Assembly (NCBI GenBank): GCA_015179045.1
Contig: WHUZ01000084.1
Coordinates: 1 to 64,000, forward strand
DNA length: 64,000 nt
Reading direction: 5' to 3'
From: Kalaharituber pfeilii
Lineage: Eukaryota; Ascomycota; Pezizomycetes; Pezizales; Pezizaceae
Positions 2,765-57,480 of the stretch are shown in pieces. A program made the position numbers and the translations under genes. The notes under the pieces were generated by a model, which searched no databases, was not told where the DNA came from, and saw only the letters and a program-made list of their open reading frames with translations. Position 1 is the stretch's first letter, and each line of letters opens with the position of its first letter.

Positions 2765-3795
2765 GCTTGCCGTCTGCTGCTCTCTCTAGGCCTCTTCTTA
2801 TCCCGTTTACTTCGACGCCCCCGAGCCCATGCCTTTCCACCTCCCCCATCCCATTTCCAAAAGCCGCCACCTACCCTGCTTTTGGTGGCCCACTCAATGG
2901 ATGCCTCCCGCTCTGCCCTTTTCTCCCGTCCCCTTGCACCTCCTCCACTTCCGTCCACTCACACTCCCCGCCCCATGATATCTCGTCCACCCCCTCTGGC
3001 ACCACAAAGCTCACCATGCTCTGCATTCGTCCTATAATGGACTCGAACACATCTTTCTTCTCTTTGCCAGCCCCACCTCCCAATCTCTCCAGTCCCTTCC
3101 CCTCTCCTCCTCCCTTTCCCCTCTGAAGCCTTCCTGACCATACATCTCCGCAGCTGGTTGGGCCTTGTATGCTCCTCGCCATGAACCTTGCCTGCGCTGC
3201 GTCCAAAGCGGTCTCTGCGCTTTCTGCCCCCATGATCTAATTCACGTTTTCTCTCGCCGTGCCATGTACTGCACCCATCGCCTTTTTCAGTACCTGGTAC
3301 TGCAGCTTCTCTACTTCTTTCCTCCACTCCTTTTGTCCCCTCCACCCTATCTCCACACCACACATCACTACCGCTCTCACCATCCCAGTGTATATCGGCC
3401 TCCAGCTTCTCGGGCTCAGCCCCCACTGTTCTCCCCTACGCCCATCATCCTCCCCGCCATCCTCCTTGCCTTCTCGATCCTCGCCTTCCAGTGGAAGTCG
3501 AATGTCAGCGTCGAATCGAAGATCACCCCCAACCACTTGATTCTTTCCACTTCCTTCCGCCGCCTCTTTACTTTGCCGAACACTATGTCTTCGTGTTTTG
3601 CCGGTTCCAGCGGCACCCCGTTTTCTTCTGCTACCTGCTTCACGATTTCCCTTACCCTCACCCTCATCCTCTCCATATCCTTCACTCCTTCCCAGTCCCA
3701 TGCGGTGACGTTGATGTCATCCACGTATGACGGGACCTCGCACTCAACATCCGGCACTTTCGCCCTTAGGGCCTCCTCCAGTTTTCGCAACGTGG
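2765..3795 (-). pseudogene. Tad-like LINE remnant, reverse transcriptase part
   Basis: Read on the minus strand, about 3795 to 3430 encodes the end of a reverse transcriptase palm: VPSYVDDINV is the YxDD catalytic box, followed by KRRRKEVERIKWLGVIFD. Downstream, in shifting frames, are thumb and linker segments (GLSPRSWRPIYTGMVRAVV, then AVHGTARENVN) typical of fungal non-LTR elements. The 5' half (endonuclease and fingers) is missing, there are several frameshifts, and the 3' RNase H region is not visible. The upstream edge abuts a TPR fragment at about 3800, which suggests that a 5'-truncated LINE inserted into an older NLR-type gene. It is not functional. Confidence 0.7.
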
Positions 3796-3799
3796 GTGC

Positions 3800-4230
3800 C
3801 AGCCATATTAACAATAAGAGTACGTGGGGTGTTCTGTACCCAGTGCCTTTCCCTCCCAGCCAATGGTCGTTCAAACAACTCTAGTGCCCTGTCATATTGC
3901 CCTTGATGATAAAATATTCCTGCCATATTGTTTACTGTACGAAGGGTATCTAGATGGTCTGCACCCAGTACCTTTTCCCTCCCAGTCAATGCTTGCTCAA
4001 ATAAGCCCAGTGCCTTGTCGTATTGGCCTTGCTGGTAGAATACTTCTGCCATGTTGTTGACCATACGGAGGGTATCTGGGTGGTCTTCACCCAGTTCTCG
4101 CGAGCCTGGGAGAAGGGAATCATATAGGCAGTCCAAGCTGCCCTTCTCCCAGCTCGCACGATTAAGCCCTATTACCCTCATCAAAGATTCCACCTTGGGG
4201 CTAGGTCCATCCCTACTCACTTCGTTCGTA
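3800..4230 (-). pseudogene. TPR-repeat fragment of an NLR-type gene
   Basis: The translation holds two and a half kinesin-light-chain-like TPR units of 42 residues (LGEDHPDTLRMVNNMAEVFY, then ADHLDTLRTVNNMAGIFYHQ). Such near-identical units form the C-terminal sensor arrays of fungal NB-ARC/NACHT STAND proteins. There is no ATG at the upstream end and no nucleotide-binding domain in the flanking DNA. The downstream side is cut by the LINE remnant. It is best read as a fragment of a lost TPR-NLR. Confidence 0.65.
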
Positions 4231-4576: not shown

Positions 4577-4641
4577 TTCTTTCTTTTTTTTTTTTTTTTT
4601 TGAACGTAACCCCGCTTGCAGCTGTTCGCCGTGGCAGGGCT
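4577..4641 (-). mobile_element. F1 micro-SINE with 12-bp target duplication
   Basis: A poly(T) run is followed by the F1 body in reverse orientation (ccccgcttgcagctgttcgc, ending gccctgc complement). The direct repeat catacctagcct lies at 4565-4576 and again at 4642-4653. The body without its tail is about 40 bp. It sits immediately downstream of the stop codon of the coiled-coil gene. Confidence 0.8.
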
Positions 4642-8771: not shown

Positions 8772-8815
8772 GCCCTGCCATAGGTTGGCAGCCTGTATGC
8801 GGGGTTACGTGATCC
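8772..8815 (+). mobile_element. F1-related micro-SINE body, longer variant
   Basis: It begins GCCCTGCCATAGGTTGGCAG and ends gcggggttacgtgatcc. It shares both termini of F1 but has a different middle. The same variant occurs inverted at 33028-33071. No poly(A) tail is preserved. Confidence 0.5.
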
Positions 8816-18052: not shown

Positions 18053-18114
18053 GCCCTGCCATGGCGAACAGCTGTTAGCGGGGTTACGTGAAATAAAAAA
18101 AAAAAAAAAAAAAA
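18053..18114 (+). mobile_element. F1 micro-SINE with a long A-tail
   Basis: GCCCTGCCATGGCGAACAGC, then tgttagcggggttacgtgaa, then about 20 A. The flanks aacttg/aacttgg give only a short possible duplication. Confidence 0.7.
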
Positions 18115-20173: not shown

Positions 20174-20328
20174 TACGGAGGTGTGGCAGAAAAGTAATTT
20201 CCACCTTCCGTCTTTGGAATAGCGTAGCTTGGCGCATATGCACACGAAATATGCATTACTATGCATAACAAGCTGGTCAACCCCGCATTCAACCCCACAT
20301 TATAGCTTAAGCACTCTTGTTCTCCAGC

Positions 20329-20612
20329 TCTCCTTCGCCAGCTCTCCTTCGCTGGCTCTCCTTCACCAGCTCTCCTTTGCCAGCTCTCCTTCGCTGGCTC
20401 TCCTTCGCCGGCTCTCCTTCGCCGGCTCTCCTTCGCCAGCTCTCCTTCGCCGGCTCTCCTTCGCCAGCTCTCCTTCGCCGGCTCTCCTTCGCCAGCTCTC
20501 CTTCGCCGGCTCTCCTTCGCCAGCTCTCCTTCGCCGGCTCTCCTTCGCCAGCTCTCCTTCGCCGGCTCTCCTTCGCCAGCTCTCCTACGCTGGCTCTCCG
20601 CCAGCTCTCCTT
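20329..20612 (+). repeat. 14-bp minisatellite upstream of the transposase
   Basis: About 20 tandem copies of a 14-bp unit (ctctccttcgccgg or ctctccttcgccag) lie between the left TIR and the start codon at 20724. Two unit types alternate, suggesting amplification of a 28-bp dimer. The array also gives long artefactual frames (repeated LSFASSPSPALLR). Confidence 0.85.
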
Positions 20613-20723
20613 CGCCAGCCCACGTTTTCTAGCTGCATTCTCCTACTGTGTTCTCCAACTCTTGTTCTCTATCTCTCATTCTTAAGCTCCTGTTTTTCAG
20701 TTTTCATTATTCAGCTTATTAAG

Positions 20724-22493
20724 ATGTTTGATATTGTAACTAGAGCTCAAGCAGTGATTTTGAAGGCAGTAGGAGAGTGTCTTGTTGAGATTCAGCGGCA
20801 AACTGGAATTACCTCTCGACAGGTTACCAATCTTTATAATAAAGCACTTGAACGAGGCTGGTATCCTGCAACCCCTCTCTCTTCATTTCATGTTATTGAT
20901 ACCCCACGCTCTGGAAGGCGTAAAAAAATTACACCTGAGGTGGAACAAAAATTGATTGAGGCTATCAAGTATGATCGTTATGGTCGGGAAAAGTCAGTTC
21001 GTTCACTAGCTGTTCAATTTAATATATCTCGCTATAGCGCATGGAAGATACTACGAAAACATGGATTCAGAAAAACCAAACCTACACGAAAGCCTGGCTT
21101 GACAAAAGAAATGAGAGAAGCACGTTATCAGTTTGCTTTACGATATCAGCATTGGACTCTTGAGGATTGGAAACGAGTGGTTTGGACAGATGAAACTTCA
21201 GTGGTATTAGGGCATAGAAGAGGAAGTTATAGGGTAAGTTGCTACTATATTTATATCTAAGCAAACTAACTAACAAAATTCTTAAAGGTATGGAGACAGC
21301 CACATGAAGTCTGCATTAAATCCTGTGTTCGAGAGCGGTGGAAAGGATACTCTGAGTTCATGTTCTGGGGATGCTTCACATATGACTTTAAAGGACCTTG
21401 TCATATCTGGAAACCAGAAACCAAAAAGGAAAAGCAACGGGCAGAAAAAGAAGTGAATCTGATTAATACTGCTATTGAGGAAGAGTGCAAGACACAGTGG
21501 GAACTCAATACTATGATGAGAAGAATGGGACTTCGGAATACAGGTAAGTGTGTGGAGATTTCTTCTACTCTTACAGCAGCCGTTTTGGCAGGCATTTTGC
21601 AGTCGATTTTTGCACCCGAGTTGGCAGCTGTTTTTTCACTCGAATTTTGCACCCGAGTTGGCAGCTTTTTTTTTGCACACGGGTTGGCAGCTGTTTGTGC
21701 ACCCGGGTTGGCAGCTGTTTTTTCATTGGATTTTTGCAGCTGTTTTGCACCCGGGCTTGCACCCGGGTAGGCAGCTTTTTTGCACGCGGGTTGGCAGCTG
21801 TTTTTTCAGTCGAATTTTGCACCCGGTAATAGCTTCTACTAACTCTGCAGCTGCTTCTAGGTGGGAGAAAGCCAACCTGGAAATTTAATGTGAAGAACGG
21901 AGCTTTTTCTAGAGAGGAAAGCAAAGGTGGAGTTGATTGGTATAGATACTTAAACGAAATTCTTCTTACCAAACTTCTTCCATTTGCTGAAGCTGCCAAA
22001 TGCTTTATTCCAAATATTACTGTCATGGAAGATAAGGCTCCTTCTCATGCTTCCAAACGTCAACGAGTTTACTTCGATGTCTCAGAAATTGAACGTTTCA
22101 TTTGGCCTGGCAACTCTCCAGACTTGAATATGATTGAACCATGTTGGGCTTATATGAAGCAAGCAACAACTAAGAAGGGTCCTTTAACTTGCCGTCTTAC
22201 TGCTGAAAAAGTGTGGCTTAAGGTATATTAGATACAATATAATGTTTAATACTATTAGTAGCTAATTTTGATATCTATACTAGGCTTGGAAGGATCTTGA
22301 ACAATGGAGAATTCAATCATGGATTGAGCGAATTCCTCGTCATATTCAAGAAGTGATTAAACTTGAAGGAGGTAATGAATATAAGGAAGGGAGGACAGGA
22401 AAACGTCAATCTGATAAATTACGGAAGTCAGATATCAGAAAAAAAAAACAAAAAAATTCGTCAAGTTTGCCAGCAAGCATATACTACCTTTAA
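20724..22493 (+). CDS. Tc1/mariner transposase (DD34E), four exons
   Basis: Cut-and-paste transposase. ATG at 20724 (MFDIVTRAQAVILKAVGECL). The N-terminal paired HTH includes SVRSLAVQFNISRYSAWKIL. Exon 1 to 21233, intron 21234-21287, exon 2 to 21543, intron 21544-21860 (filled by a minisatellite), exon 3 21861-22222, intron 22223-22283, exon 4 from 22284. Splicing joins RVWRQPHEV and RNTGGRKPTWKF in frame. Catalytic residues: D in WTDETS, D in VMEDKAPSHAS, E in SPDLNMIEPCW, with 34 residues between the last two. The C-terminus RIPRHIQEVIKLEGGNEYK runs to a TAA at about 22493. A second acidic frame (to 22704) overlaps an A-rich tract and may be the original C-terminus after a one-base slip. 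All motifs are present, so the enzyme may work. Confidence 0.85.
21595..21835 (+). repeat. About 27-bp minisatellite inside a transposase intron
   Basis: Tandem, partly degenerate units of tgcacccgagttggcagctg plus a T-run fill most of intron 2. The array lies wholly between the GTAAGT donor (21544) and the TTCTAG acceptor (21860), so coding continuity is kept. Confidence 0.8.
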
Positions 22494-33027: not shown

Positions 33028-33071
33028 GGTCACGTAACCCCTCATAGGCTACCAACCTATCTATGGCAGGG
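33028..33071 (-). mobile_element. F1-related body, longer variant
   Basis: The reverse complement starts CCCTGCCATAGATAGGTTGG and ends gaggggttacgtgacc. It matches the variant at 8772-8815. No tail retained. Confidence 0.45.
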
Positions 33072-34358: not shown

Positions 34359-37300
34359 TCACTCGCCCCTGGCTAGGGCCTGCAGCTCCTCCTCCTCAAA
34401 CTCTTCCTCTAGCTCCTGCAACACAGTCTCCACATTCTCGGGATCCACAACCGCCTTCTTACTCGAGCGTTTCTTCTTTGGTTTTACCTCCATTTCAGCC
34501 TTACCTTCGGCTTCACTCTCGTCAAGAGGTTCGGTCGCTTTTTTCCTAGGAGTGCGTTTCCTAGTCTTCTTTTCCGGGATGGCTGCTTCGGCGTTTTCAG
34601 TGCTGGGCTCGATGTCCTGGAGAGCTGGGTCGCTGGCCTTCTTCTTCGATGCTCGCTTGCGTGTCTTAGGGGTCTCAGCGACAGCCTCCATGGATCCGTC
34701 GGCCTCCGAAGCAGTCACCTCCTGCTCTGACTCCGTCTTCTTCCTCGCCACCCTCTTCGTCTTCTTAACTGGCTTCACCTCCTCTTTCACTTCTTCCATC
34801 ACCCCCGTTTCCATCTCTTCTTCAACAGCACCTACCCTCCTGCCGACATTACTCTCCAACGAGGTCTCCACATCCGGCACCCCCTGCTCTCCGTCTGTCA
34901 CACCCCAGGTATGCACCACAACCCCTTCCGGATCCGACATTCTCGTCCCCCTCTCACCATTCTCTACCTTCATCATTCTAGCCCCAGCGCCACCACTCCC
35001 AACCTTCACCACGTCCTCCAGCGACTCGCTGTGAGTTACTACCAGGACATGTTTTACTTCTCCTCCAGCAGCGCCAATCCGTGATGTCCCAGCTGCCGAG
35101 ACCGCCGAGATCAGCTCGGCTGCCTGCACCTGACCCTCGCGGTCCAGAGCGTCGAACACCTCATCCAACATGATGAAGTCTGCTCTGAAGCGCGATTTCT
35201 GGCGAATGAGCTGGAACAATGCGAACAGGACAGCAAGATTATTCCTCTTTCTTTGGCCCGAGGAGCGTTTCCCAAAAGCGGACGGCGGGTAGATACTGAG
35301 ATCTGGTGTAAACGATATTGGCAGTTCGGCGTCCAGGCGTCGCTGTAGCCCGAGCGTGTTCGTTGTCGTCACTGCCGGCGCCGGACTGAGTATCGGTGTA
35401 GTAAGGAGGCTCATATTCGTCTTGATGAGTGAATTCAGCTCTTCGATTGAACTCGAGATCAAAAAATGCCGCATATTTGGCGCATTCACTGTCGCCTGCT
35501 TCTTACTGAAAGCCGTATCCCAGAACAGTAGCACTCTAATGTCCCCCTCCAACCTCTCCAGCCTCTCCCTACTCCCCTCCATCTCTTTTTCCAACGCCCC
35601 CATCTTTTCCCTCATAGTCTTCACTTGTGTAGTGGCAAAGCTTACCTCTGTCGCCAACTTAGTCAAACTGGAAGTTAAAGTCGTTCGCCGCGCCGATAAC
35701 GTCTGAATCCTCCTCAGCAGCTCCTTATGGTTCTGCATTGCTTTCTGCAACGACGAGACGGCCTCGTCATCTTGACGATTGGCAAGCACGGCCACCTCCT
35801 CCATTGTTCTCCCATTCAGCATCTTTTCCAACGACTTCTCCGCTCTCTTCAGGTCGTCCCTCAAGCTTCCGAGTGGTGTCTCATTCACATAAATCGCCCT
35901 TTTAGCCTCGCGCTCTCTCTCCGGTAACCCACTCAAATAACCCAAAGTGAGATCCCGCTGCTCCATCGTCTTGAGCACGTCCTTCTGCTTCTCCTCCTGT
36001 GCCAAGAGTTCCCTCTTAATCTCATCCCTCTCTTCGCCCAACTTTTCCATGTTCTTCTCGGCTTCCTCCTTCTGCTTCTTATACCTCGCGATATGTTTCT
36101 CCACATGCTGCGTGTCACTGAGGGACTGCTGACACGTCGGACACACTCCTCTATCTGCCTCTTTCACAAATCTCTCCAATTTCCTTTCAAGCTCCCTGAT
36201 TTGGCTGGACGCCTGCCGCAACTCCATGTCCTTCATTTGCACTTGCCGATTCGCTCTGTCGATTTCCTTTTGCGCCGCGGCCCACGTTGCATATACTGGC
36301 CTCGCCTCCTCTGCCTTCTTCAACGCCCTCCTCGCCTCTTCAACCGCCATTTCTCTCGTGACAATCTGCTCTTCAAACCGCCCCCTGTCGTCATGCAGCC
36401 TCAACAACGCATCATACACCTTGTTCCACTCCAGAATCCTCCCCTGTTCCCTTTCGACCCTCTCCCTGTCGACCTCAAACCTTTTTACCTCCTCCTCTAA
36501 CCGCCCAAGCTCATCCTCCGCTTTCCTCCGCATTTCCTCCTTCGGCCCAATTCCACTTTCCAACCTTTCGCTTTCCCATTTCAAGTTCCTTATCTCCGCA
36601 CTCACCACTTCACTCCTGGCTTTCAATCCTATATAGTCTTTCTCCAGAACCCTCTTTTCATCCCGCACCGCTTTCATATACCCCTCGAACCTCCCGATTC
36701 CCAACAACTCATCCAGAACCTCCCTCCGCTGCTTACTATCTAGTGTCAAAAAGTTTCCCGCGCCAGCTCCCTGATCCCCAAAGATCACACTCTTGGTAAA
36801 CGTCCCAAAATCGCACCCAATTACATCCCTCTCGAGCGCCATCTGCGTTTTCCTCATCTCTCCCCTCTCAAATCCCTCAACTTCCTTTCCATCCTTATAC
36901 AACCTCAGTCCCGGCCCGCTTCCTCCACCCTTCGAGGGAAAATTCCTGAACCGTTCCACGCTATATCCATTCTCAAAGTCGATTCGCACACAACAGTTCC
37001 GCCTCACGACATCGTTGATCGGATCTGCGGCCGCCATGTCGCTACGCAGGACCTGCCCGAACAGACACCACACTATGGCCTCCAGGATCGTGCTTTTTCC
37101 AGACCCATTCGGCCCAGTCAGAAACCAAATGCCCGGCGCGAGCTTTTCAAACGGGATCGTGAGGGAGCCTTGGATCGAAAAAAAGTTTTGGATCATGAGC
37201 GTTTTGAGCGTGCCGTGGAAGACGGGCAGCGAGGATGTCGTGGAGACGTGTGCGGTCGTATTGGGCCCTGTGAGGCCTGCGGCGGTGTCGGCGTCCGCTT

Positions 37301-38636
37301 GTTTCATGAGGCGTTCAGCGACGGCGATGTATTCGGAGCGTTTGTCGGCTGGGATGAGATTCAGGTCCTGAGGTATTGTGTCAATAAACGCAGGGAGGGC
37401 TTCGATAAACGTGGCGGTTGTCGGTGCTCTGAGGGTCTCCTCTTCCTCCTCCTTCCTCTTCGCTGCCTCAGCCTCTAGGCCTTCTTCACCTGCCTCCTCG
37501 GTAGCGCCCCTTTTCTCCCCAGTTGCACCAAATATCCCTTGCCCCAGCGTCACCTTCCTCCTCACGTCGCTCGCCCCCGCTTCCATCAACCTCGCCCTCC
37601 ACGTTTCAAATTCCAAGGCGTCGACCGAGTTGCACGTCACGTTAATCCTCTTTTTCTGAGGCTCAAACGGTAAGTTCCACTGCAGCGCCTCATCCACCCC
37701 TTCCCCTACAACCTTTACCCCTTCCTTCAATTCCCGCAACCCAACCTCCCTAAACACATCCCACTCCGGATTCTGCACGAACGTGTACTTCGGCCGCCCT
37801 GCTGCCGTCTCCTCTCCCGGCTCCACAATCATCACACCCCTCCTCTCATCTGACTTGTCCCCGAAATGATGCTGCATTGGTGCGCCCACGTACCAGACCC
37901 CTCCTCCTGCTCCATCTCCACTATCTCCTCCCAACTCTTGGTGGTGATGAAAGTGCCCCAAATACGCGCCTCTGAACCCACTCAAATACCTCCCCTTCAG
38001 GACACCCGAATAGCACCTATATCTGCTCGTTACCGGTACACTGGGCTGCTGGATTGCTCCTGATACTGCGAGATGCCCAAACAGCAAGCTTCTCCCCTTC
38101 ATCATATCGTCCATCTCCACCAGCTTCTGCACCACCTCCGAATGATTCTCAACCCACGGCACCATGAGGCATGGGTACCCCTCAATCTCTCTTTGCTCCC
38201 ACTCCCGATACAAACTCCATCCACTCCTCAGCGCCTCTATGCTAAACACGTCCAAACTGCTCACTCTCGCCGAGTGCTTCAAATTCATGTCATGATTCCC
38301 CAACACAATATGCACCGGCGCGATCGACGCCAATTCGTCGAAGAAGCGGATTGCCGAGGACAATGCTTGCACATGCACATGTTCGCGCGTGTTGATGACG
38401 TCGCCTAGGCAAATGATCTGAGACACGCCGTTGGCACGGAAGGTGTCGAGGATCCAGTTGGATGTTGCAATGATGCGGGGGAGGTCGTCAGGCTGGAAGT
38501 GGAGGTCCGAGAAGAGGCCCCATTTTGGCTTCCGGGGCAGGGGAGCAATCGTGGATAAGGAGCGAGCATGTGAGCGGATAGCGATTAGGGCGGTGGGAAG
38601 GCGGCCTGCTCTGATGCGCGTCTGGGCGTTGAGCAT
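34359..38636 (-). CDS. Single-chain SbcD-SbcC (Mre11-Rad50-like) nuclease/ATPase fusion
   Basis: An uninterrupted 1425-aa frame joining both halves of a DNA-end-processing complex. I start at the ATG at 38636; the frame extends upstream only through non-ATG codons. Residues 1-38 have Arg at 7, 9, 12, 21, 25 and 35 and no acidic residue, which looks like a mitochondrial presequence. Metallophosphoesterase motifs: FSDLH (42-46), CLGDV (76-80), GNHD (113-116), FGHLAVSG (from 186), GHFHHH (from 227). After an acidic linker comes an SMC-like ATPase: Walker A GPNGSGKST (508-516), coiled coils, zinc hook CPTC (832-835), signature SSGQRKR (from 1125), Walker B FIMLDEVFDALD (1154-1165). The tail (after about 1230) repeats basic KKTRKR-type blocks in acidic sequence. 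The wording is bacterial/phage SbcCD-like rather than like nuclear Mre11 or Rad50. Location and activity are inferred. Confidence 0.85.
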   Translation of the reverse strand: MLNAQTRIRAGRLPTALIAIRSHARSLSTIAPLPRKPKWGLFSDLHFQPDDLPRIIATSNWILDTFRANGVSQIICLGDVINTREHVHVQALSSAIRFFDELASIAPVHIVLGNHDMNLKHSARVSSLDVFSIEALRSGWSLYREWEQREIEGYPCLMVPWVENHSEVVQKLVEMDDMMKGRSLLFGHLAVSGAIQQPSVPVTSRYRCYSGVLKGRYLSGFRGAYLGHFHHHQELGGDSGDGAGGGVWYVGAPMQHHFGDKSDERRGVMIVEPGEETAAGRPKYTFVQNPEWDVFREVGLRELKEGVKVVGEGVDEALQWNLPFEPQKKRINVTCNSVDALEFETWRARLMEAGASDVRRKVTLGQGIFGATGEKRGATEEAGEEGLEAEAAKRKEEEEETLRAPTTATFIEALPAFIDTIPQDLNLIPADKRSEYIAVAERLMKQADADTAAGLTGPNTTAHVSTTSSLPVFHGTLKTLMIQNFFSIQGSLTIPFEKLAPGIWFLTGPNGSGKSTILEAIVWCLFGQVLRSDMAAADPINDVVRRNCCVRIDFENGYSVERFRNFPSKGGGSGPGLRLYKDGKEVEGFERGEMRKTQMALERDVIGCDFGTFTKSVIFGDQGAGAGNFLTLDSKQRREVLDELLGIGRFEGYMKAVRDEKRVLEKDYIGLKARSEVVSAEIRNLKWESERLESGIGPKEEMRRKAEDELGRLEEEVKRFEVDRERVEREQGRILEWNKVYDALLRLHDDRGRFEEQIVTREMAVEEARRALKKAEEARPVYATWAAAQKEIDRANRQVQMKDMELRQASSQIRELERKLERFVKEADRGVCPTCQQSLSDTQHVEKHIARYKKQKEEAEKNMEKLGEERDEIKRELLAQEEKQKDVLKTMEQRDLTLGYLSGLPEREREAKRAIYVNETPLGSLRDDLKRAEKSLEKMLNGRTMEEVAVLANRQDDEAVSSLQKAMQNHKELLRRIQTLSARRTTLTSSLTKLATEVSFATTQVKTMREKMGALEKEMEGSRERLERLEGDIRVLLFWDTAFSKKQATVNAPNMRHFLISSSIEELNSLIKTNMSLLTTPILSPAPAVTTTNTLGLQRRLDAELPISFTPDLSIYPPSAFGKRSSGQRKRNNLAVLFALFQLIRQKSRFRADFIMLDEVFDALDREGQVQAAELISAVSAAGTSRIGAAGGEVKHVLVVTHSESLEDVVKVGSGGAGARMMKVENGERGTRMSDPEGVVVHTWGVTDGEQGVPDVETSLESNVGRRVGAVEEEMETGVMEEVKEEVKPVKKTKRVARKKTESEQEVTASEADGSMEAVAETPKTRKRASKKKASDPALQDIEPSTENAEAAIPEKKTRKRTPRKKATEPLDESEAEGKAEMEVKPKKKRSSKKAVVDPENVETVLQELEEEFEEEELQALARGE

Positions 38637-39509
38637 GGTGGGGACCTGAGAGACAAAAGGACCCTTGCGTACCACTCCAGAAACCGACGTCAACAAGATC
38701 AAGGGGGGGGGGGTTGATGCGGTGGGCACGGTTGTTAGAGACAACAGCCTGAGCCCCGAAGTTTGCTTGAAGGTGGGCGAGCCCGAACTCAAGATTTTAT
38801 GTTGGTCCCTGCCAAGATCTTGTTTTCTTAAACTTTTTTTCCGATGAGGCCGGTGCCAAGAGTTGCGACGTTTGCGGAGTGGTGGGGCTTGTTGCACAAA
38901 GCGGGGTTCCAGCACATGCAGGCCGCCACGGCTGGGCGGATGCAATGCAGACGTGCTGAATTACAGTAGGAAAGAAAAAAAAGAAAAGTGGGGTTAGATT
39001 TTCAAACTATGCAATTGGTTTTCTGGATCTGAGAACTACCGTCGAAGATGTGCTATGCATACCAGTATTGGCGGTTACGAGACTAGGTGCCGATATGTAC
39101 CAGCATGCTGTACTCAAGTAGATTACGGTAACATAATGCTTGATGTGCTGGCGAAGCTGTCACACTACGCAAGCTACCTGGTGAACTACCCGTGCTTTAA
39201 CCTACTGCTGCACCCCAGCTTGGAAATATAACGTGATTTGAATCTTGCGAAGTTAATGCATTAAATTGAGCTATAGAGTAGAGAAATATTCTGTTCACCC
39301 TCGCTGTGTATATTTAATTCAATTCTATCTTCATGTCCGGGCGGCCCAAGGGATAGCACAAGCGAGCACCACTATATCACGCGAGCTGAATGATGCGTTA
39401 CAGAAGAAGAAAATTAAATACATGTACACAGCAATCAACTAGAGAGGAAAACAGGGGGAACAAAGCGAAAATAAAAAGAGTGCAAAAATGGCGAAAATAA
39501 AGCAAAAAG
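38637..39509. other. Intergenic between the fusion gene and the 10-kb element
   Basis: The part next to 38637 would hold the fusion-gene promoter; it has an 11-base G run at about 38703-38713. The rest is AT-rich and shows no coding signal. Confidence 0.35.
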
Positions 39510-42504: not shown

Positions 42505-43390
42505 CTACTGAGGGTGATGCAGTCGCCGTGCGAGTTGGAAAACGTGCTCCGGATGGACCTCGATATACCGCTGGTATGCCTCTGATTTCCATCTTCCTAG
42601 CAGCTGAATCTCTTCCTTCGATAGCCCTGCCCTCTGCGCTGAGGTTGCAGCCCCTCTACGGAAGGAGTGGCCTGAGTACTGGCCACCTATGCCTAGCTGA
42701 CCCAGTATACGGCGGAGTGTGTTCACCACATGATCCCGTGTAAATGGAAGCCCGTTTTGACGAGAAAAGAGTGGGGCTTCTGGTGCTGCTGGTGCCAGCT
42801 GGTACAGCCGTTGGAGGGAGGTTACCGGGCATGCCGCATCTCCAGCTGCTGCGACTGTGAGGGTTATTCCGCGCCGGAAGGGGTCAGTCTTACTTGCCGG
42901 CAGAGTCACGTATACCCGTGACTCCGCGAATTGGATGGACCTGCGGGTGAGGTGCCATTGTGGGGCGTCCTGCTCCCAGGTTGACCAGGTGAATTCTCCA
43001 ACCCGTAAGAACCCTGCGAAGGCTAAGCAAAAGGCAGCATGTAATGCTATATCGTCCAGTGATCGGCCGAACTGGTCCACTATCCGGAGGAGGAGGTCCC
43101 TCGTAATGGGTAGTCTCTCTCGACGTGCCGGGGTTTCCCCATGAAAACGTTTGATACCCCTTAATATCCTTTGGAGCCTCAGGTCCTGGAAGGCTTCGAC
43201 TGAGTGGCCTAGGTCCACATGCAGGGACCGCAGTCCAGTGAGGTATAGCTTCATAGTCTCTGTTTTGACTTTTCCTGCTAGAGAGGCGACCCACTCACAG
43301 AGCATCACTGCAGTTGCGGGGAAGGGGTTGGCACCGGAGAGGGCGCAAAAGAGTGCATATTCCCGTCTCGCGGTATGGTATGTTCGTCTG
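42505..43390 (-). CDS. Tyrosine recombinase of the YR retrotransposon
   Basis: It inserts the circular cDNA by site-specific recombination. The core-binding part begins upstream of the first ATG (REYALFCALSGANPFPATAV) and continues ETMKLYLTGLRSLHVDLGHS. Catalytic residues: Arg in FAGFLRVGEF, the HxxR box GHSFRRGAAT, and the nucleophile Tyr in GRWKSEAYQRYIEV. The conserved Lys may be in PASKTDPFRRG. It overlaps the end of the RT-RNase H frame by about 85 bp in another frame, a usual arrangement in DIRS-like elements; translation probably needs frameshifting or re-initiation. The reading frame is intact. Confidence 0.85.
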
Positions 43391-45079
43391 GTGGTTGCTG
43401 AGAGTCCCCACCAGAGGTATCTGGCTGCTCGTCGCGGGAGGTCTGGAACGTCGTTGTACCATGACTCTGGTGGGTCATATGTGACTTGGGCGTCTGTAAC
43501 CTGGACAGCTGTGGTGCAAGGTTAGCTACTTTCTTGAACTCGAACCGGGATAAAGCATCTGCTAGTGTGTTTTCCCCTGTGGGTATCCAATGAACAATCA
43601 ACTCAATATCCTCCTTTGCACTCAGAAGAGTGATTTTCCGGAGGGGGTCCATTGCGGCCCTCTCATTGTTCGCCTAGCGAGGCCATTTACCACTGCGGTG
43701 TTGTCATTGTGGATGTGCACGCGAGCACCATGCCATATTTTTCCCCAACGCCGGAGGGAGTGGAGGACTGCGGCCATCTCCTTGAAGTTTATGTGCTTGT
43801 CCCGATGCCTGCGAGGCACTCTCGTGGAAAAGGCGTTTTCCAGTGGAATAGTCGTGAGGTCATACATTGAGTCTCCCTCTTTTGGTAGGTAATACCCCCC
43901 AATTCCTTTACGTCCTGAGGCGTCAGTCCAAAGGGCGAATTCTCGCCGATTGGCGTGAATAATTGACACTCCGTCCCAGGATGGGAGGAAATTTAGCCAC
44001 CAGTGCAGATCTGCTCGCATGTCGGCGGTGATATGGCACCTTCGATTAGGTGCGGAGTAAGATGAAAGCGCATTATATAGGCGTCTCAGGAAGGTACGGC
44101 CCATAGGTACCACTTTTGCCGCGAACGATAGGAAACCCGTTAACGATTGAAGTTCGAGTAGGGTTAGTGACCGGCGTTTGAGGTAGAGCCTCAGGAGTAG
44201 GAGTGCCTTTGCGTGCTTATCTGATGGCAGGCGTGCTTGCATGGCATTCGTGTCTATTAGAATTCCTAGGAATTCGGCTACTGTCGACCGTAGGCTTTTG
44301 GACTCCTTGATTTCGAATCCGAGATCCCGGCAGATTTGTGCGAAATCTTGCTCATACTGACTTGCATCCGCATGTGGATCTAGCACCTTTAAGAAGTCGT
44401 CTAGGTATTGGAGTATGTCCTCCCAGCCTTTCTCGTTTTCCAGGATCCATCGTAGCCCTTTTGCGAATAGATCAAAAATGAAGGGCGAGGTCCGGAGGCC
44501 GAATGGTAGGTACTTGTCATACCACCAGCTTCCTTCCCAGGAGAAGCCTAGTAGCCACCAGTCCTCGGGGGACACTGGGATGTGGCGGAATGCATTGGCT
44601 AAATCTCGTTTTACCAGAATGGCACCCTTCCCTTTTTTTGCCACTGCCGCAAGTGCTTCGTCAAACTTGACATATACGAGGGTGCCCCACGAGGGTGGTA
44701 TGTGGTCGTTGACTGAGTTGCCATGTGGGTGTGATAGGTGGTGTATCCTCCGCCAGCCTCCATCAGCTTTTGGGACAAGGCCTAGGGGGGAGGAGATAAA
44801 ATTCTCTGGTAGTACTGCGACCTGACCAACCCGTCCATGAGAAATCTGCTCTTGGAGGTCTTTCGTAAGGACCTGTGGGGCGTCGTTTGCGGATGGGAGG
44901 TTTTTGCTTAAGATCTGCTGGGCTGGCCCGGTGTAGCCTATCTTGGCCCCATATTGGATTATTCTTATGAGTGTATTAACATAATAGCGGTCTGGGTGGT
45001 TCTTTAGCCAGCGGGCCCAACCTTCGGCCTGAAGCGGGCCTGGGTCAATTTCTGCGGGATGGTCACTGCGGGACGTCAC
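43305..45079 (-). CDS. Reverse transcriptase-RNase H of the YR retrotransposon
   Basis: RT: VLPENFISSPLGLVPKADGG, RRIHHLSHPHGNSVNDHIPP, ILVKRDLANAFRHIPV (first Asp), LPFGLRTSPFIFDLFA, DILQYLDDFL (YxDD), FLGILIDTNAM. RNase H: FALWTDASGRKG (Asp), NFKEMAAVLHSL (Glu), HIHNDNTAVV (Asp), PTGENTLADALSR (Asp), so all four catalytic acidics are present. Between the last two the frame changes at about 43650 (TMRG then MDPLRKITLL), which could be one indel or programmed frameshifting. The open frame has no ATG near its start, so expression from gag by readthrough or re-initiation is likely. Confidence 0.8.
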
Positions 45080-45163
45080 GTGATATGGAAGATATACGGA
45101 GGATTCAGAGCTAGGATAATCATTTGATTTAATTACTACCCCTAGTGATCCTCCCTCTAATTG

Positions 45164-46237
45164 CTACCTCGAGGCTTGGATGCGATCCGCAAATGATGTT
45201 GCATTTGCCCCCGTAGCCGGTGCATTGGCACCTTGTTGGCAATTTGGGTGGGGTTTGGCGCACGAAATACAGATGTGTGCGTATCGGCAGTTTGGGCTTC
45301 TGCATGTGCCCTGATTGAAGCGGAAGCATGGGGTGGGGCTTGGGCCCTGTGACGGTGCTGCTGGTGCTCCCCATGATTTCTGGCGTTTTGCGTCGCTTGC
45401 CGGTAGGTGCTCTGTCGACATTCGTGGTAGGCGTCTCATTAACAGATGTTGCAATGTGGGATCCTGTTCCCGCCAGCCTTGAGGGTCATAGACGTCGAGG
45501 AGGATCCTTTTTTGATGAAACGCCACGTGGAAAACCCGGATGCTTTCCCATGTGTGCAGATGGTAGAGGTCGTATAAGCGGTGCCTATAGAAGGCTAGAG
45601 CTGCGCTCAGGCGGAGCTTGACGCCCTGCGGGGCGAATTGGACCAGGGCCTGGCAATATACCTCGAAAGGCTGCATGAGCGTGTGAATTGAGCGGTATTC
45701 CTCGATCTCCACATCGCGGGTGGTTGTTGGGATTTCGTATGGTCCCAATGTCAAGGTTTCTTGTTTCCGCTTCCTTGCCGCGGTAAGGGGGTAGAAGGAG
45801 GCATTGATCTTTAAGAGGTTCTCCGCCTTGAAACGGCCCTCCAGTATCTCCCGCCAGATAGCCGGGTCTACCGCTGGGTATTCTGTGTGAAGGGGGAGGG
45901 TGCGGGGGTCATTACCCTCATTCTGTGATGCCTCCGAGGCTGGTATTATTGGTCCTGCTGGGGTTGCCCGTTGCTGTGCAGCCAGGAGGCCCTGTAGCAC
46001 CCGTTGTACGATTCTATCCTCGTCTATAGCCGCGGAGGGTGCTGCGGAGGGTGCTGTGGCGGGTGCTGCGTTCTGGTTTGCTGGTGGGGTTTCTGGGACT
46101 TGTTCGTCGAACAAACCCATTTGCCCAGCAGATGGCCCAGCGTGCATGGTGAATGTCGATATAGCGTTTGGTGTTTGTGAGCGAGAGGTTTGTGAGCGAG
46201 TTCTGTAGTTGCGACTGGTCATAAGGCACCGGGGCAT
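45164..46237 (-). CDS. Gag-like protein of the YR retrotransposon
   Basis: Start chosen at the ATG at 46237 (MPRCLMTSRNYRTRS). A Pro/Ala-rich N-terminus (about residues 45-75) is followed by the capsid-like part (ENLLKINASFYPLTAARKRK, RSIHTLMQPFEVYCQALVQF) and a C-terminal CCCH-type zinc finger: CFRFNQGTCRSPNCRYAHIC, then CISCAKPHPNC. This finger arrangement is usual in Ngaro/DIRS-like gag proteins of fungi. It ends at 45164, about 85 bp before the RT frame. Intact. Confidence 0.75.
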   Translation of the reverse strand: MPRCLMTSRNYRTRSQTSRSQTPNAISTFTMHAGPSAGQMGLFDEQVPETPPANQNAAPATAPSAAPSAAIDEDRIVQRVLQGLLAAQQRATPAGPIIPASEASQNEGNDPRTLPLHTEYPAVDPAIWREILEGRFKAENLLKINASFYPLTAARKRKQETLTLGPYEIPTTTRDVEIEEYRSIHTLMQPFEVYCQALVQFAPQGVKLRLSAALAFYRHRLYDLYHLHTWESIRVFHVAFHQKRILLDVYDPQGWREQDPTLQHLLMRRLPRMSTEHLPASDAKRQKSWGAPAAPSQGPSPTPCFRFNQGTCRSPNCRYAHICISCAKPHPNCQQGANAPATGANATSFADRIQASR

Positions 46238-46261
46238 ATGTGTAGAAAACAAAGGTATGGG

Positions 46262-46515
46262 GGGTGATTTCGCAACTCACGCGGCTTGGAGAGGGAGGAC
46301 CAGCGTCTCCCTCACCCCTTCTATATACTGAGCATCCCTTCGCTGCCTGCCCATGACTACCACAAAGGGATCACCCAAACGGGAAACCAACTAGAGAGGG
46401 ACTGTGCTGTGGCTTGGTGGCGCCCACTAGTGGCTTGCCCTCTCTTCCGTGGTCTCGAGGGTTGTGGTGGCTGCTCTCGAGCCTCCCATTAGCTTGCGGT
46501 TGAACCGCCAAATCT
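46262..46515 (-). repeat. 5' terminal direct repeat (A1)
   Basis: A near-identical copy of 41999-42252, beginning gtgatttcgcaactcacgcg on the plus strand and ending aaccgccaaatct. Confidence 0.9.
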
Positions 46516-47107: not shown

Positions 47108-47851
47108 ATGGGCCGTCTGAACAGGAAAAGAAATGCTTGCTTGCTTGCTTCTCAAGCTGCTGCCAGCAAGGCGAAAAGGAGAGCAGTTATATATGGAGTG
47201 GAAGTAAATACTGTCGAGCCGGTAACAGCAGAGATGCATGTGGATATCTCCGGACCGCTTGTATATACCGAGAGTGAAGAGTCTTTAGTGGATGAGTCTT
47301 TTTTTTTTTTTTTTTTTAATTTCACGTGACCCCGCTTGTAGCTGTTCGCCATGGCAGGGCTAGTGGATGAGTCTGAGTGGGAATCAGAGGAGGAGTAGGA
47401 GGAACATGAGCAGGATATTCAGGACTTGAGTATGGCGGTGGATGTTTATAATGAGCTGATGAAGAATACAATGAATGTAGACTTCTCCACTATTAAGTTC
47501 AAATATCAGTGTGGAGTTCAGGTGTCTCGCCAGACAGTATGGCGGCATAAAAAAGCTCAACAAGATTTACGAAACTCAGCTACCGGATGTCGACCGTTGA
47601 CAGCTTACTTCACTACTCCATTAAATTCAGAGGCAGCGCCAAGTCTAACAGCTAATCTCAAGCCGAAGTCTGAGGAGGAAATGACAGCAGAGGCGATTTT
47701 AGCAGGAATTAAGGTACTACAAAAGAAGTTGAAAAGTAAAAAAGAGATGGTTACTGGGCAAAATTATCAGCGTCACCTAGCAGTTCTACATTTTCTACAA
47801 CTTCAGTTACTTACACAATGTGTATATAAGAGTCATAGAAGAGTTAAATAG
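47108..47851 (+). pseudogene. N-terminal fragment of a fungal DDE-type element protein
   Basis: ATG at 47108 (MGRLNRKRNACLLASQAAAS), an acidic stretch, one in-frame stop (47395), then VQVSRQTVWRHKKAQQDL, ATGCRPLTAYFT and SKKEMVTGQNYQRHLAVLHF to a stop at 47851. From memory, this order of motifs precedes the catalytic domain in a widespread group of large fungal DDE transposon proteins; here the catalytic part is absent. An F1 micro-SINE with a 13-bp duplication interrupts the frame at 47299. Confidence 0.5.
47299..47360 (-). mobile_element. F1 micro-SINE with exact 13-bp target duplication
   Basis: tagtggatgagtc lies at 47286-47298 and 47361-47373. Between them: poly(T), then aatttcacgtgaccccgctt, then the rest of F1 to gccatggcagggc. 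Removing the insert plus one duplication restores the surrounding coding frame, so the insertion boundaries are unambiguous. Confidence 0.9.
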
Positions 47852-49677: not shown

Positions 49678-50787
49678 GGACATTCCCAATGTTCAGGACC
49701 TTGAGATAAGCTCAAGTTCGCCATTTGCAAGCCACTCGCGAGCTGTCAAATTCAAGTACTAGTAATTAGTAACAAGGAACGTAAGTAAGTGAGGCCAACT
49801 TATCATAGCGACGTCGCCTTTGGCAGGAGAACCAAGTGGCAGGTGCAAGAGTGGTATGTCGATTGATGGACTCGGATCATGAGGATAATGGATGCGAGTT
49901 ATGCTGGTATGTACAGTTGAATCCAAAGGGCGATGAACGGAATGCACGAAAAACGGAACTTGACAGTCGCGCGAACCTAGGTCAAGTATATCAAAATACG
50001 TATTGTTTGTTACCTGGGCCTGTGAATTTGGATGGGATGTGCTGTCATCCCATGACATGGAGTCAACTGGAATCACTTTGTGTGCCACGGCGAACCAGCT
50101 CTGGTGGATGCAGCACCGCCACTCAGTGGCCGCCATCAGATGATTTAGTGTCGGAGTGTCTTTTGCGCAGCTAACATAGATGAAAAACAATCATTGATTC
50201 ACAACAATCTTTCCTCTAATTCTAATAGTCGTTAGTCAAGAACTCTCTTGCGCGGAAGAAACCAATAACCTTATTACTACTGTCCTCCCTTCAGCCTCTG
50301 GATTGGAATACGAGTATTAATCTCGCAGCTCGCGGCCAACAATGGCCCCCTTGTCCTACAACGAATGTATAAGCAATCTGCTACCGATGGGCGGCGCTTC
50401 CAGTCCTTATTGATGTAGTCGTAACGAGCCATGTAAAACCTTCAAAGCATAGCGCGAACGATGTATCCTGCAAGAAAACGTAAACGAGCACTAAGCTCCT
50501 TTGCATTCTTTTCCCCTTCGATAATACCAGCAGACTTCAAAATAAATTACTGCCCTGCCATGGCGGACAGCTGCAAGCGGGGTCACGTGAAAAAAAAAAA
50601 AAAAATTACGCCGTTTGTCCTAAACGGTCATATAGACTGTGTAGTAATCTTGCTATAGTTCATATGTAAATCTCCTTCCATGCCCCAAAATGTACCCATA
50701 ACCTACTATTGCAGGACCGGAAAGGAGTTGTAAGGTCCCTTTAGACTCGAGATTTCTCTGCTGGGCATAAAACTCTATTGCACCAGG
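49678..50787. other. Intergenic with one F1 copy; no gene supported
   Basis: Frames on both strands at 49760-50190 lack ATG starts on the plus side and recognisable domains on either. Otherwise only the F1 copy at 50552. Confidence 0.35.
50552..50606 (+). mobile_element. F1 micro-SINE
   Basis: GCCCTGCCATGGCGGACAGC, then tgcaagcggggtcacgtga and an A-tail. The flanks share aaattac, partly merged with the tail. Confidence 0.75.
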
Positions 50788-51153
50788 TGTGGTGGTAACC
50801 ACAGTACCGATGGAAAGAATAGGGCCAAACGCGGCCCGGAGCGGTACTCATCGGTAGGGCCACATGCGTAGGATGAGGAAGAAAGCTACATTTAAGAAGC
50901 GAGATGTGGATGTACAGGCTCAGTTGGAGGGGAAGGTGGTCTATAAATTGTATGTAGATAGGACTGTGGAAGTAGGCAAGCAAGTAGCAACAGGCATGGA
51001 TAAGAAGCAGGACAGACATGGACACGCAGACAAGACAATTGAAGACCCTTTCCTTGACATTTGATCATTGAGGCCGCCCTTAAGGCTTCATTCTGCCAGC
51101 TCTAGATACCGGTACCCATGCGAAACAGTGGATGCTGTTGAGCCGTCATCACA
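50788..51153 (+). repeat. 5' LTR
   Basis: 366 bp, TG...CA ends, nearly identical to the 3' LTR apart from its insertion. Confidence 0.85.
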
Positions 51154-51469
51154 TTGGTCCCTTCGACCGGAGAGCTGTGGCTGCAGAATGAGACTTATGG
51201 GCAAATTTGACTATCTACAACACTCAGGACTCGCAAGACTTTGGTTACAGAATACGATGATGGCATCATCGGTTTGGACACCTTTCGCTATCTGCTCGCT
51301 AAAGCAGTATTTGGACTAAAGATTGAGTTGAGTTTTGGCCCGGCTATCATGGATTCTATCATATGCAAGCTACCTTTACAGCTTCAAATTTCAGAGATGA
51401 TGTCAATATTTGTGTGCTACGTTGTTATCAGGTTAACTATGAGGGTTGAGCAATTGGTGCATTCAGACA

Positions 51470-54334: not shown

Positions 54335-54706
54335 TGTGGTGGTAACCACAGTACCGATGGAAAGAATAGGGCCAAACGCGGCCCGGAGGGGTACTCATCG
54401 GTAGGGCCACATGCGTAGGATGAGGAAGAAAGCTACATCTAAGACGCGAGATGTGGTTGTACAGGCTCAGTTGGAGGGGGAGTTGGTCTATAAATTGTAT
54501 GTAGATAGGACTGTGGAAGCAGGCAAGCAAGCAGCAACAGGCATGGATAAGAAGCAGGGCAGACATGGACACGCACAGACAAGACAATTGAAGACCCTTT
54601 CCTTGACATTTAATCATTGAGGCCGCCCTTAAGGCCTGTTCCGCCAGCTCTAGATACCAGTACCCGCCCTGCCATGGGGAACAGCTGCACGCGGGGTCAC
54701 GTGATA

Positions 54707-54737
<31 letters not shown>

Positions 54738-56248: not shown

Positions 56249-57480
56249 GATGGTGATGCAGAGGAGGAAGCTTCAGGAATCAGAACCTGAGGACGATCAG
56301 ATGCATCTTGATACCCAACCAACAGCCCCATCATCCCCGCCTCCTTCTCCGCCAACCAGCCCAAAACGATCCGCCTGTACGCTGAGCAACTACACTTTCG
56401 GCACCAAAGAGACGCAACCAGAGGAAGACCCCTAGGTCCTCGCACGACTACAACGACTACAAGAGCATTATGAGCAGCACGGCATGCGGCGGACATGCGA
56501 AGGCATTCTTGTATGCCACGAGCATAGTAGAAAACGGAGATGACAAACGGAAAAGTTCCCGGTAAATGCGGCAATTCATAACCCTCCAAGGCTCGCCGTA
56601 TTTGACCTCTGTGGCTGTGAACGGCAGTGTAAATCCCGGCCCCACAAACACCACCCTCTCAGCGGCCTTCACTGATGGCACGGCGGCTTTGGCGTGACTG
56701 CAGAAAGTATTTTGCCGGTAATCTGCGCCGCGCAAGGCGCGCCTCTACCGGGTCTCAACAGCCTTGCCGCACTGAGAGCATACTGTCTCTTTCCGAGTCA
56801 TAAGGACTTCGGTACAGTGCGATTAGCGAGCTTATGAGGAGGGGGTGCGCCGTCTGACGTCCATGGCATGGCGAGTACGGATGCGAGTTTGGTATTGAAC
56901 CGGGCGGACAAAGCACCGTCTGCAAGCCCCTCAGTTCGCCCTGCCACAGCGAATAGCGATAAGCGGGGTTACAAGAAAAAAAAAAAAGGCCCCTTAGTTG
57001 TGGGAAACCCATCGCGATTCCAGCACGGCCACCCAGTAGGAACGTGACAAGAGGGGAAGCAAAAGTGGTGCATGATTTGGCTGGATGTCGTTTCCTGAAA
57101 TGCTTGTGGTTCTGGTTACGAGACTACTTGGGGTTGACGATCGGTGAATGTGAATGTGAATGTTGTAGGGTGATATAGTAGAGACTATCGGGGCGACTGG
57201 ATTGGCCTTCTTATGTTTTGTAAATGTTGATTTCCTTTCAATGTCAATTTTGTATGGATTGCTTTTCTTTATTCTTTCCGTTCAGTTGTATCTAGGGGCT
57301 TGGTATGGGACTAAAGTTATATATACTCCTTAGTTTTGCTATTACCTGCCCTATTGAGTCTGCCGGAACCTGGCTCCTAAATGAAGATACGCTTTACCTA
57401 AGGAACCTTGCTTCCTAGTCTGGCTGGCACGACTTGCTTCCATCACCCGTGTCGGTAGAGTTGGGTAAGGTAGGGCAAAT
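56249..57480. other. 1.2 kb with one F1 copy and a possible exon
   Basis: The frame 56250-56435 may belong to the preceding gene. 56440-56930 is GC-richer but gives no domain. The rest, after F1, is AT-rich and non-coding. Confidence 0.3.
56938..56986 (+). mobile_element. F1 micro-SINE with 11-bp target duplication
   Basis: gccctgccacagcgaatagc, then gataagcggggttacaag and A-tail. The flanks are gcccctcagtt (56926-56936) and gccccttagtt (56988-56998), one mismatch. Confidence 0.75.

What the first reader, a model, noticed from the sequence alone, without database searches (positions are those of the whole stretch)
47299..47360. F1: a poly(A)-tailed retroposon with a body of only about 40 bp
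About ten copies or relics share the same 5' end (GCCCTGCC) and end ggggttacgtga plus poly(A). At 4577, 47299, 54666 and 56938 they are flanked by 11-14 bp duplications, and at 54666 the other LTR is the empty site. Known fungal SINEs are several hundred bp. Inference: a very short RNA mobilised by the local LINE machinery.
Basis: partly seen in the sequence, partly recalled or inferred. Interest (0 to 1): 0.87.

Follow-up and report, generated by a model that had tools for sequence, protein, structure and literature searches.

The report
Hairpin-only retroposon of 39 bases
A truffle-type (Pezizomycete) fungal genome carries over a thousand copies of the last 39 bases of its LINE retrotransposons, a stretch predicted to fold as RNA into one hairpin; most copies sampled start at that same base and end in a poly(A) tail, and they were likely copied from trimmed pieces of LINE RNA, which would make them among the smallest mobile elements known.

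Summary
The 39-bp body at 47322-47360 (-) has 1,849 relatives (up to 3 mismatches, within longer copies or alone) in the 78-Mb genome, 0 for the reversed control. Of 109 short copies read, 96 have target duplications, 86 of these 12-14 bp (chance: 2 of 541). The empty site of the 54666 copy is real.

It is not ordinary truncation either. Of 100 young copies picked by their last 19 bases alone, 86 start at the 39-nt point, 6 at a 76-nt point, 7 are longer LINE copies and 1 keeps only about 21 nt. Both points are the 5' base of a predicted hairpin. Five tail subfamilies made the same 39-nt form. Extra 5' bases match the LINE no more than chance, and microhomology is near chance.

I infer that LINE RNA is trimmed to the hairpin that the LINE reverse transcriptase would bind, and that this stump is copied end to end. 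RT termination and hidden short master genes remain rivals. My searches listed no such element.

The parts
47322..47360 (-). F1 body, 39 nt; 84 of the 101 copies read that have the exact 3' 19-mer carry this identical 39-mer; predicted hairpin
47300..47321 (-). AATT plus poly(A) tail of F1
47286..47299 (+). target-site duplication, left copy (TAGTGGATGAGTCT; last T could belong to the tail)
47361..47374 (+). target-site duplication, right copy
54666..54704 (+). F1 copy; tail (TA)n then A to 54735; duplication AGATACCrGTACCCG; empty site in a repeat at 50919-51163
4602..4640 (-). F1 copy with poly(A) and 12-bp duplication AGGCTAGGTATG
56938..56976 (+). older F1 copy (8 mismatches), 11-bp duplication with 1 mismatch
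18053..18091 (+). F1 copy with poly(A), no convincing duplication
50552..50590 (+). F1 copy with poly(A), duplication weak (7 bp)
8772..8812 (+). older relative of the same 3' hairpin with a different inner stem (41 nt)
33030..33071 (-). older relative of the same 3' hairpin
2940..3820 (-). relic of a related LINE (63-71% protein identity to the L024 RT region)

Best explanation
F1 has the sequence of the last 39 nt of several LINEs plus poly(A) and sits at LINE-type target sites with duplications, and its fixed 5' end likely means that the template was LINE RNA already trimmed to the base of its last predicted hairpin. Shown: identity with LINE 3' ends, poly(A), 12-14 bp duplications, a pyrimidine|purine target site, and two discrete 5' ends (39 and 76 nt), the 39-nt end in five tail subfamilies and the 76-nt end in at least sub1, sub2 and sub4. 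Predicted: both ends coincide with the 5' base of a stem (hairpin III, CCCUGC/GCGGGG; hairpin I, AAGCCUG/CGGGCUU). Inferred: a 5'-to-3' exonuclease, or a structure-specific endonuclease, removes the rest of the RNA up to the hairpin, which the LINE protein would hold; the LINE RT then primes on the poly(A), copies the stump to its physical end, sometimes adds a few untemplated bases, and joins the cDNA to the target.
For: LINE copies L022 and L024 (4.7 kb, 91% alike) end in this sequence plus poly(A); frames of L024 hold EEP endonuclease, RT and RNase H. Of the first 100 of 455 exact 3' 19-mers, 86 start at the 39-nt point, 6 at 76, 7 are longer LINE copies and 1 keeps about 21 nt. Of 45 extended copies 11 end at 76; all 11 have duplications, 10 of them within 2 nt of the same point. 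Short copies with duplications: sub1 81 of 85, sub1b 5 of 5, sub2 3 of 4, sub3 3 of 3, sub4 1 of 1. Of 96 short copies with duplications 53 start exactly; 23 have 1-4 extra bases, of which 6 end in G, the LINE base there (chance about 6); 20 (21%) have 1-3 nt overlap, about 25% expected. Target YY|R: +1 is A or G in 94 of 96. Folds. Just upstream of the 76-nt point sub2 has almost no structure (-0.3 kcal/mol over 39 nt) and two sub1 flanks fold no better than shuffles, against an RT barrier there.
Against: No RNA was measured. The 127-nt 3' end of L024 prefers another fold in which hairpins I and III are not formed. Folding z-scores are modest (-1.3 to -2.6 for hairpin III, -0.1 to -0.8 for the 74-76 nt forms). 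Covariation support for hairpin III is weak: 87% of cells paired (no shuffle of 1,000 reaches it; 32-50% when slid), but the numbers of pair types and of compensatory pairs do not exceed shuffles. No copy read starts at hairpin II. Overlaps of 3 nt (4 of 96) are a little above the 1.6% expected for a 3-nt match. Sub2 makes few short copies (3 of 23 exact copies read), which a general trimming rule must explain. A precedent in Magnaporthe favours RT pausing at hairpins (PMC2104539, passages read).
Confidence: 0.5

Rival explanations
1. The RT starts on full LINE RNA and drops off at two fixed places because of RNA structure or bound protein, so F1 is an extreme, positionally sharp form of ordinary 5' truncation.
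For: In Magnaporthe MGL, template switches recur at fixed sites with predicted hairpins just upstream (PMC2104539, passages read). Predicted hairpin II lies 4 nt upstream of the 39-nt point.
Against: Almost no structure upstream of the 76-nt point in sub2, and no stop where hairpin I or II would be met from the 3' side (0 of the 11 extended copies that end under 100 nt). Extra bases match the LINE at chance (6 of 23) and overlap is not raised overall (20 of 96).
Confidence: 0.3
2. F1 is a true SINE: a few short source genes, one per subfamily, are transcribed from outside promoters and supply the 39-nt RNA.
For: In sub1 86 of 100 copies are short, in sub2 3 of 23, as if sub1 had a strong source.
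Against: No Pol III A or B box above chance in the 39- and 76-nt forms tested, no tRNA gene and no credible Rfam match at one LINE 3' end. The same end arose in several subfamilies, and short copies carry tail bases seen in matching long copies (sub2: GAT in 3; one search counts 3 of 5, but one of the five, L128, is a long copy that script misfiled; sub3: TT in 3 of 3).
Confidence: 0.15
3. Ordinary variable 5' truncation of LINEs, or an assembly artefact.
For: A few copies of intermediate length exist (L035 and L017, about 160 nt).
Against: 86 of 100 at one point; duplications in 96 of 109 against 2 of 541 by chance.
Confidence: 0.02

Closest known systems
SINEs with a LINE-derived 3' tail (stringent type), e.g. 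Mg-SINE with MGL, SINE2-1_BG with Tad1 (table passage in PMC3747384)
   Same: 3' end shared with a LINE and presumably recognised by its RT; duplications; no coding capacity
   Different: F1 shows no tRNA/5S/7SL head and no Pol III promoter; it is the tail alone, 39 nt
5'-truncated LINE copies
   Same: collinear with the LINE 3' end, poly(A), duplications
   Different: truncations are described as falling at various positions, lengths 100 to 1,000 bp (PMC3747384, passage read); here one sharp point at 39 nt and a lesser one at 76 nt
ZfL2-1/ZfL2-2 (and UnaL2) 3' stem-loops recognised by the LINE protein (PMC4176376, passages read)
   Same: a small 3' hairpin, which in those LINEs is needed for retrotransposition
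   Different: there it is part of the LINE; I saw no record of the hairpin alone as an abundant element
MINE and other chimeric retrogenes of Magnaporthe (PMC2104539, passages read)
   Same: fungal LINE RT with recurrent template positions near predicted hairpins
   Different: those are template-switch fusions; F1 is a free-standing short unit, and the GCC* switch motif reported there is at neither F1 start

Membership tests
SINE | small, non-coding, dispersed with LINE-type duplications and 3' tail | tested here: met
SINE | head from tRNA, 5S or 7SL RNA with internal Pol III promoter | tested here: not met
   one LINE 3' end; 39- and 76-nt forms of two subfamilies
SINE | transcribed as its own RNA | not testable with these tools
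   no RNA data
5'-truncated LINE copy | collinear with the LINE 3' end and tail | tested here: met
5'-truncated LINE copy | variable 5' end | tested here: not met
   86 of 100 at 39 nt, 6 at 76 nt
APE-type LINE insertion product | duplications of about 10-20 bp at a loose T-rich/A target (target rule recalled) | tested here: met
   12-14 bp in 86 of 96; YY|R
stringent-type LINE 3' tail | conserved 3' stem-loop shared between families | tested here: inconclusive
   hairpin predicted, 87% of pairs kept, little covariation; another fold in a longer RNA
stringent-type LINE 3' tail | hairpin bound and required by the LINE protein | not testable with these tools
   needs binding or retrotransposition assay
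Tad clade of fungal LINEs | RT phylogeny | not tested
   only domain order EEP-RT-RNase H seen; clade name recalled

The most novel reading that the evidence does not exclude
F1 is a new kind of mobile element: a stable decay stump of LINE RNA. The cell's RNA-trimming machinery, not a promoter, defines the element, and the LINE RT spreads the stump by the hundreds or thousands as a hairpin-only parasite that re-arises from each new LINE subfamily.
Probability: 0.4. Interest if true: 0.87.

Novelty: new variant of a known kind. Interest (0 to 1): 0.72.

Why it matters
It would set a natural lower limit for what a LINE RT can mobilise: about 39 nt plus poly(A), essentially the predicted recognition hairpin. 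It offers many natural end points for asking whether 5' truncation is decided by the RT or by RNA decay before copying, a question usually studied with mixed-length copies. Such units may be easy for repeat finders to overlook (not tested here), so similar elements could be hidden in other genomes.

Tried and rejected
Head-to-tail F1 dimers (a sign of template jumping at RNA ends): among 154 distinct copies two same-strand pairs lay within 160 bp (L017, L081). They look like separate insertions: both members at L081 and the downstream member at L017 have their own duplications. L094 is one F1 inserted into an older F1 with a duplication inside it (sequence, read by eye). The genome-wide dimer search did not complete (see below).

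Splice-site origin of the 76-nt start: sub2 has TTTTTAG just upstream, but sub1 and sub3 do not; rejected from sequence. Known RNA: no credible Rfam match at one LINE 3' end (best E 4.1, outside the 76 nt), none at gathering score in the window. Pol III SINE. F1 as a short coding mRNA (ATG GCG AAC AGC ...): not pursued; older forms such as window 56938 (CCACAGC) and the 41-nt forms (CCATAG) lack this start.

Full report
What was checked. The body at 47322-47360 (-) is a clean insertion with a 13-14 bp duplication and poly(A). The 39-mer with up to 3 mismatches occurs 1,849 times in the 78.03-Mb assembly (934 forward, 915 reverse); read backwards it occurs 0 times. These counts include 39-mers that end longer LINE copies: a 50-nt pattern reaching 37 nt further upstream gives 233. 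A second subfamily string (ACCC...TTATGTGA) gives 1,079 at up to 3 mismatches; the two strings differ at four positions, so the sets overlap and are not to be added. The host is a Pezizomycete by inference: the best named relatives of one window protein are from Tirmania, Terfezia and Peziza, at 55-57% identity.

Target duplications. In the loci held I gathered 154 distinct copies within 8 mismatches of one of five forms: 109 short, 44 extended, 1 cut by a locus end. Of the 109 short copies, 96 have a duplication by a fixed score; pairing copies with the 3' flank of others gave 2 of 541. Length is 12-14 bp in 86 of 96. A later pass, with one copy (L010) moved to 'extended' and a slightly looser tail rule, gave 97 of 108. 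The 13 without a call include four window copies, of which 54666 and 56938 show duplications with one mismatch. The base before the duplication is T or C in 79 of 96 and its first base A or G in 94 of 96, a LINE-type nick. Most loci were chosen because they hold an exact copy, so young copies are over-represented.

It is the LINE 3' end. L022 and L024 share 4.7 kb at 91% and end with a 76-nt segment, whose last 39 nt are F1, and poly(A); frames of L024 hold EEP endonuclease, RT and RNase H domains. Diverged LINE copies in L010 and L026, with an RNase H frame just upstream, share a similar tail. Sub2 long copies in L011 and L015 are a 1.34-kb element with a 316-aa frame and no RT (L015 has the duplication ACTGCTGTAGTT, seen; L011 has 20 extra bases at its 5' end), like a gag-only half-LINE (comparison recalled); the frame has no Pfam match.

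It is not ordinary truncation. To avoid choosing by 5' end I searched only the last 19 bases (455 exact) and read the first 100 places listed. By, rechecked, they are 86 short, 6 at 76 nt (L004, L015, L020, L052, L085, L088), 7 longer LINE copies (L022, L024, L034, L035, L037, L045, L096) and 1 that keeps about 21 nt (L055, no duplication found). Among the short ones L050 has a 4-nt insert, L054 a small internal deletion, and L053 starts 3 nt inside. These 100 lie on the lowest-numbered contigs and are young (exact 19-mer). Among 45 extended copies overall, 11 end at 76 nt, 2 near 160, 1 near 187, and the other 31 reach about 200 nt or more, several to the limit of what was read. All 11 at 76 nt have duplications (L085 has 15 extra T, and L014's has 1 mismatch).

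Several tail subfamilies do it. Short copies with duplications: sub1 81 of 85, sub1b 5 of 5, sub2 3 of 4, sub3 3 of 3, sub4 1 of 1, old forms 2 of 5, other 2 of 5 (the labels are mine, by sequence motif). Of 23 exact sub2 copies read at distinct places (20 fetched plus L015, L017 and L022; L030 repeats L015), 3 are short (L112, L120, L123), 1 is 76 nt (L122) and 19 are longer. So the 39-nt end is a property of the shared tail, while its frequency differs strongly between subfamilies.

Structure. Hairpin III (pairs 1-32 to 7-26, inner stem of 3-4 pairs) and, in the 76-nt form, hairpins I and II are predicted. The 39-nt start is the first base of stem III, or the second pair if the flanking G pairs too; the 76-nt start is the first base of stem I in sub1 and near it in sub2. 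In 19 diverse forms 87% of pairs are kept (0 of 1,000 shuffles; 32-50% when slid), but compensatory changes do not exceed shuffles. One LINE 3' end of 127 nt folds differently. So the structural claim is a prediction.

Which mechanism. If the RT fell off an intact RNA, spill-over into the next LINE bases (AGGG) and raised microhomology would be expected. Instead 53 of 96 are exact; 23 have extra bases (17 single: T8, C5, G3, A1), 6 of the 23 ending in the LINE base G; overlap of 1-3 nt occurs in 20 of 96, near chance, though the 4 with 3 nt are slightly many. Nothing structured sits just upstream of the 76-nt point in sub2. This looks more like run-off at a physical RNA end, hence my preference for trimmed templates. 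The Magnaporthe precedent for RT pausing at hairpins (PMC2104539, passages read) keeps RT termination alive at 0.3. That a LINE protein holds the hairpin is an analogy to zebrafish LINEs (PMC4176376, passages read).

Literature. Ten searches of the open PMC library listed, by title and start of abstract, no element of this size made only of a LINE tail; three of them returned nothing. Subscription papers and repeat databases were not searchable, so this is limited. For PMC5063351 (Aspergillus SINEs) I saw the abstract start and passages; its 5S-related SINEs average 259-343 bp. For PMC3747384 I saw the abstract start and passages. Other papers were seen only in search listings.

Noticed in passing
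window 34359-38960 (-): One 1,533-aa open frame joins an Mre11/SbcD-like metallophosphatase to a Rad50/SMC-like ATPase; proteins with both domains occur in Tirmania, Terfezia, Peziza, Rhizina and one Trichoderma.
   Followed up: partly
window 42505-46276 (-): Adjacent frames with a phage-integrase domain and an RT with a weak RNase H-like match: looks like a DIRS-type element (type name recalled).
   Followed up: no
window 9697-12441 (-): Frames with a NACHT domain and WD40 repeats side by side, a fungal NLR-like gene (name recalled).
   Followed up: no
window 20223-21260 (+): Transposase-type HTH domain, Tc3-like.
   Followed up: no
L011 and L015 (minus strand): 1.34-kb non-autonomous element with a 316-aa frame, no RT, ending in the same 76-nt LINE tail.
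   Followed up: partly
L014, L026, L003, window 54705-54720: Between the body and the poly(A) some copies have runs of C, T or TA (for example 12 C), as if the RT stuttered at priming.
   Followed up: no
L085: A 76-nt copy has 15 T between the target duplication and its 5' end.
   Followed up: no
window 47108-47299 (+): The F1 insertion lies about 190 bp into an open frame that starts at 47108 with MGRLNRKRN; the gene was not identified.
   Followed up: no
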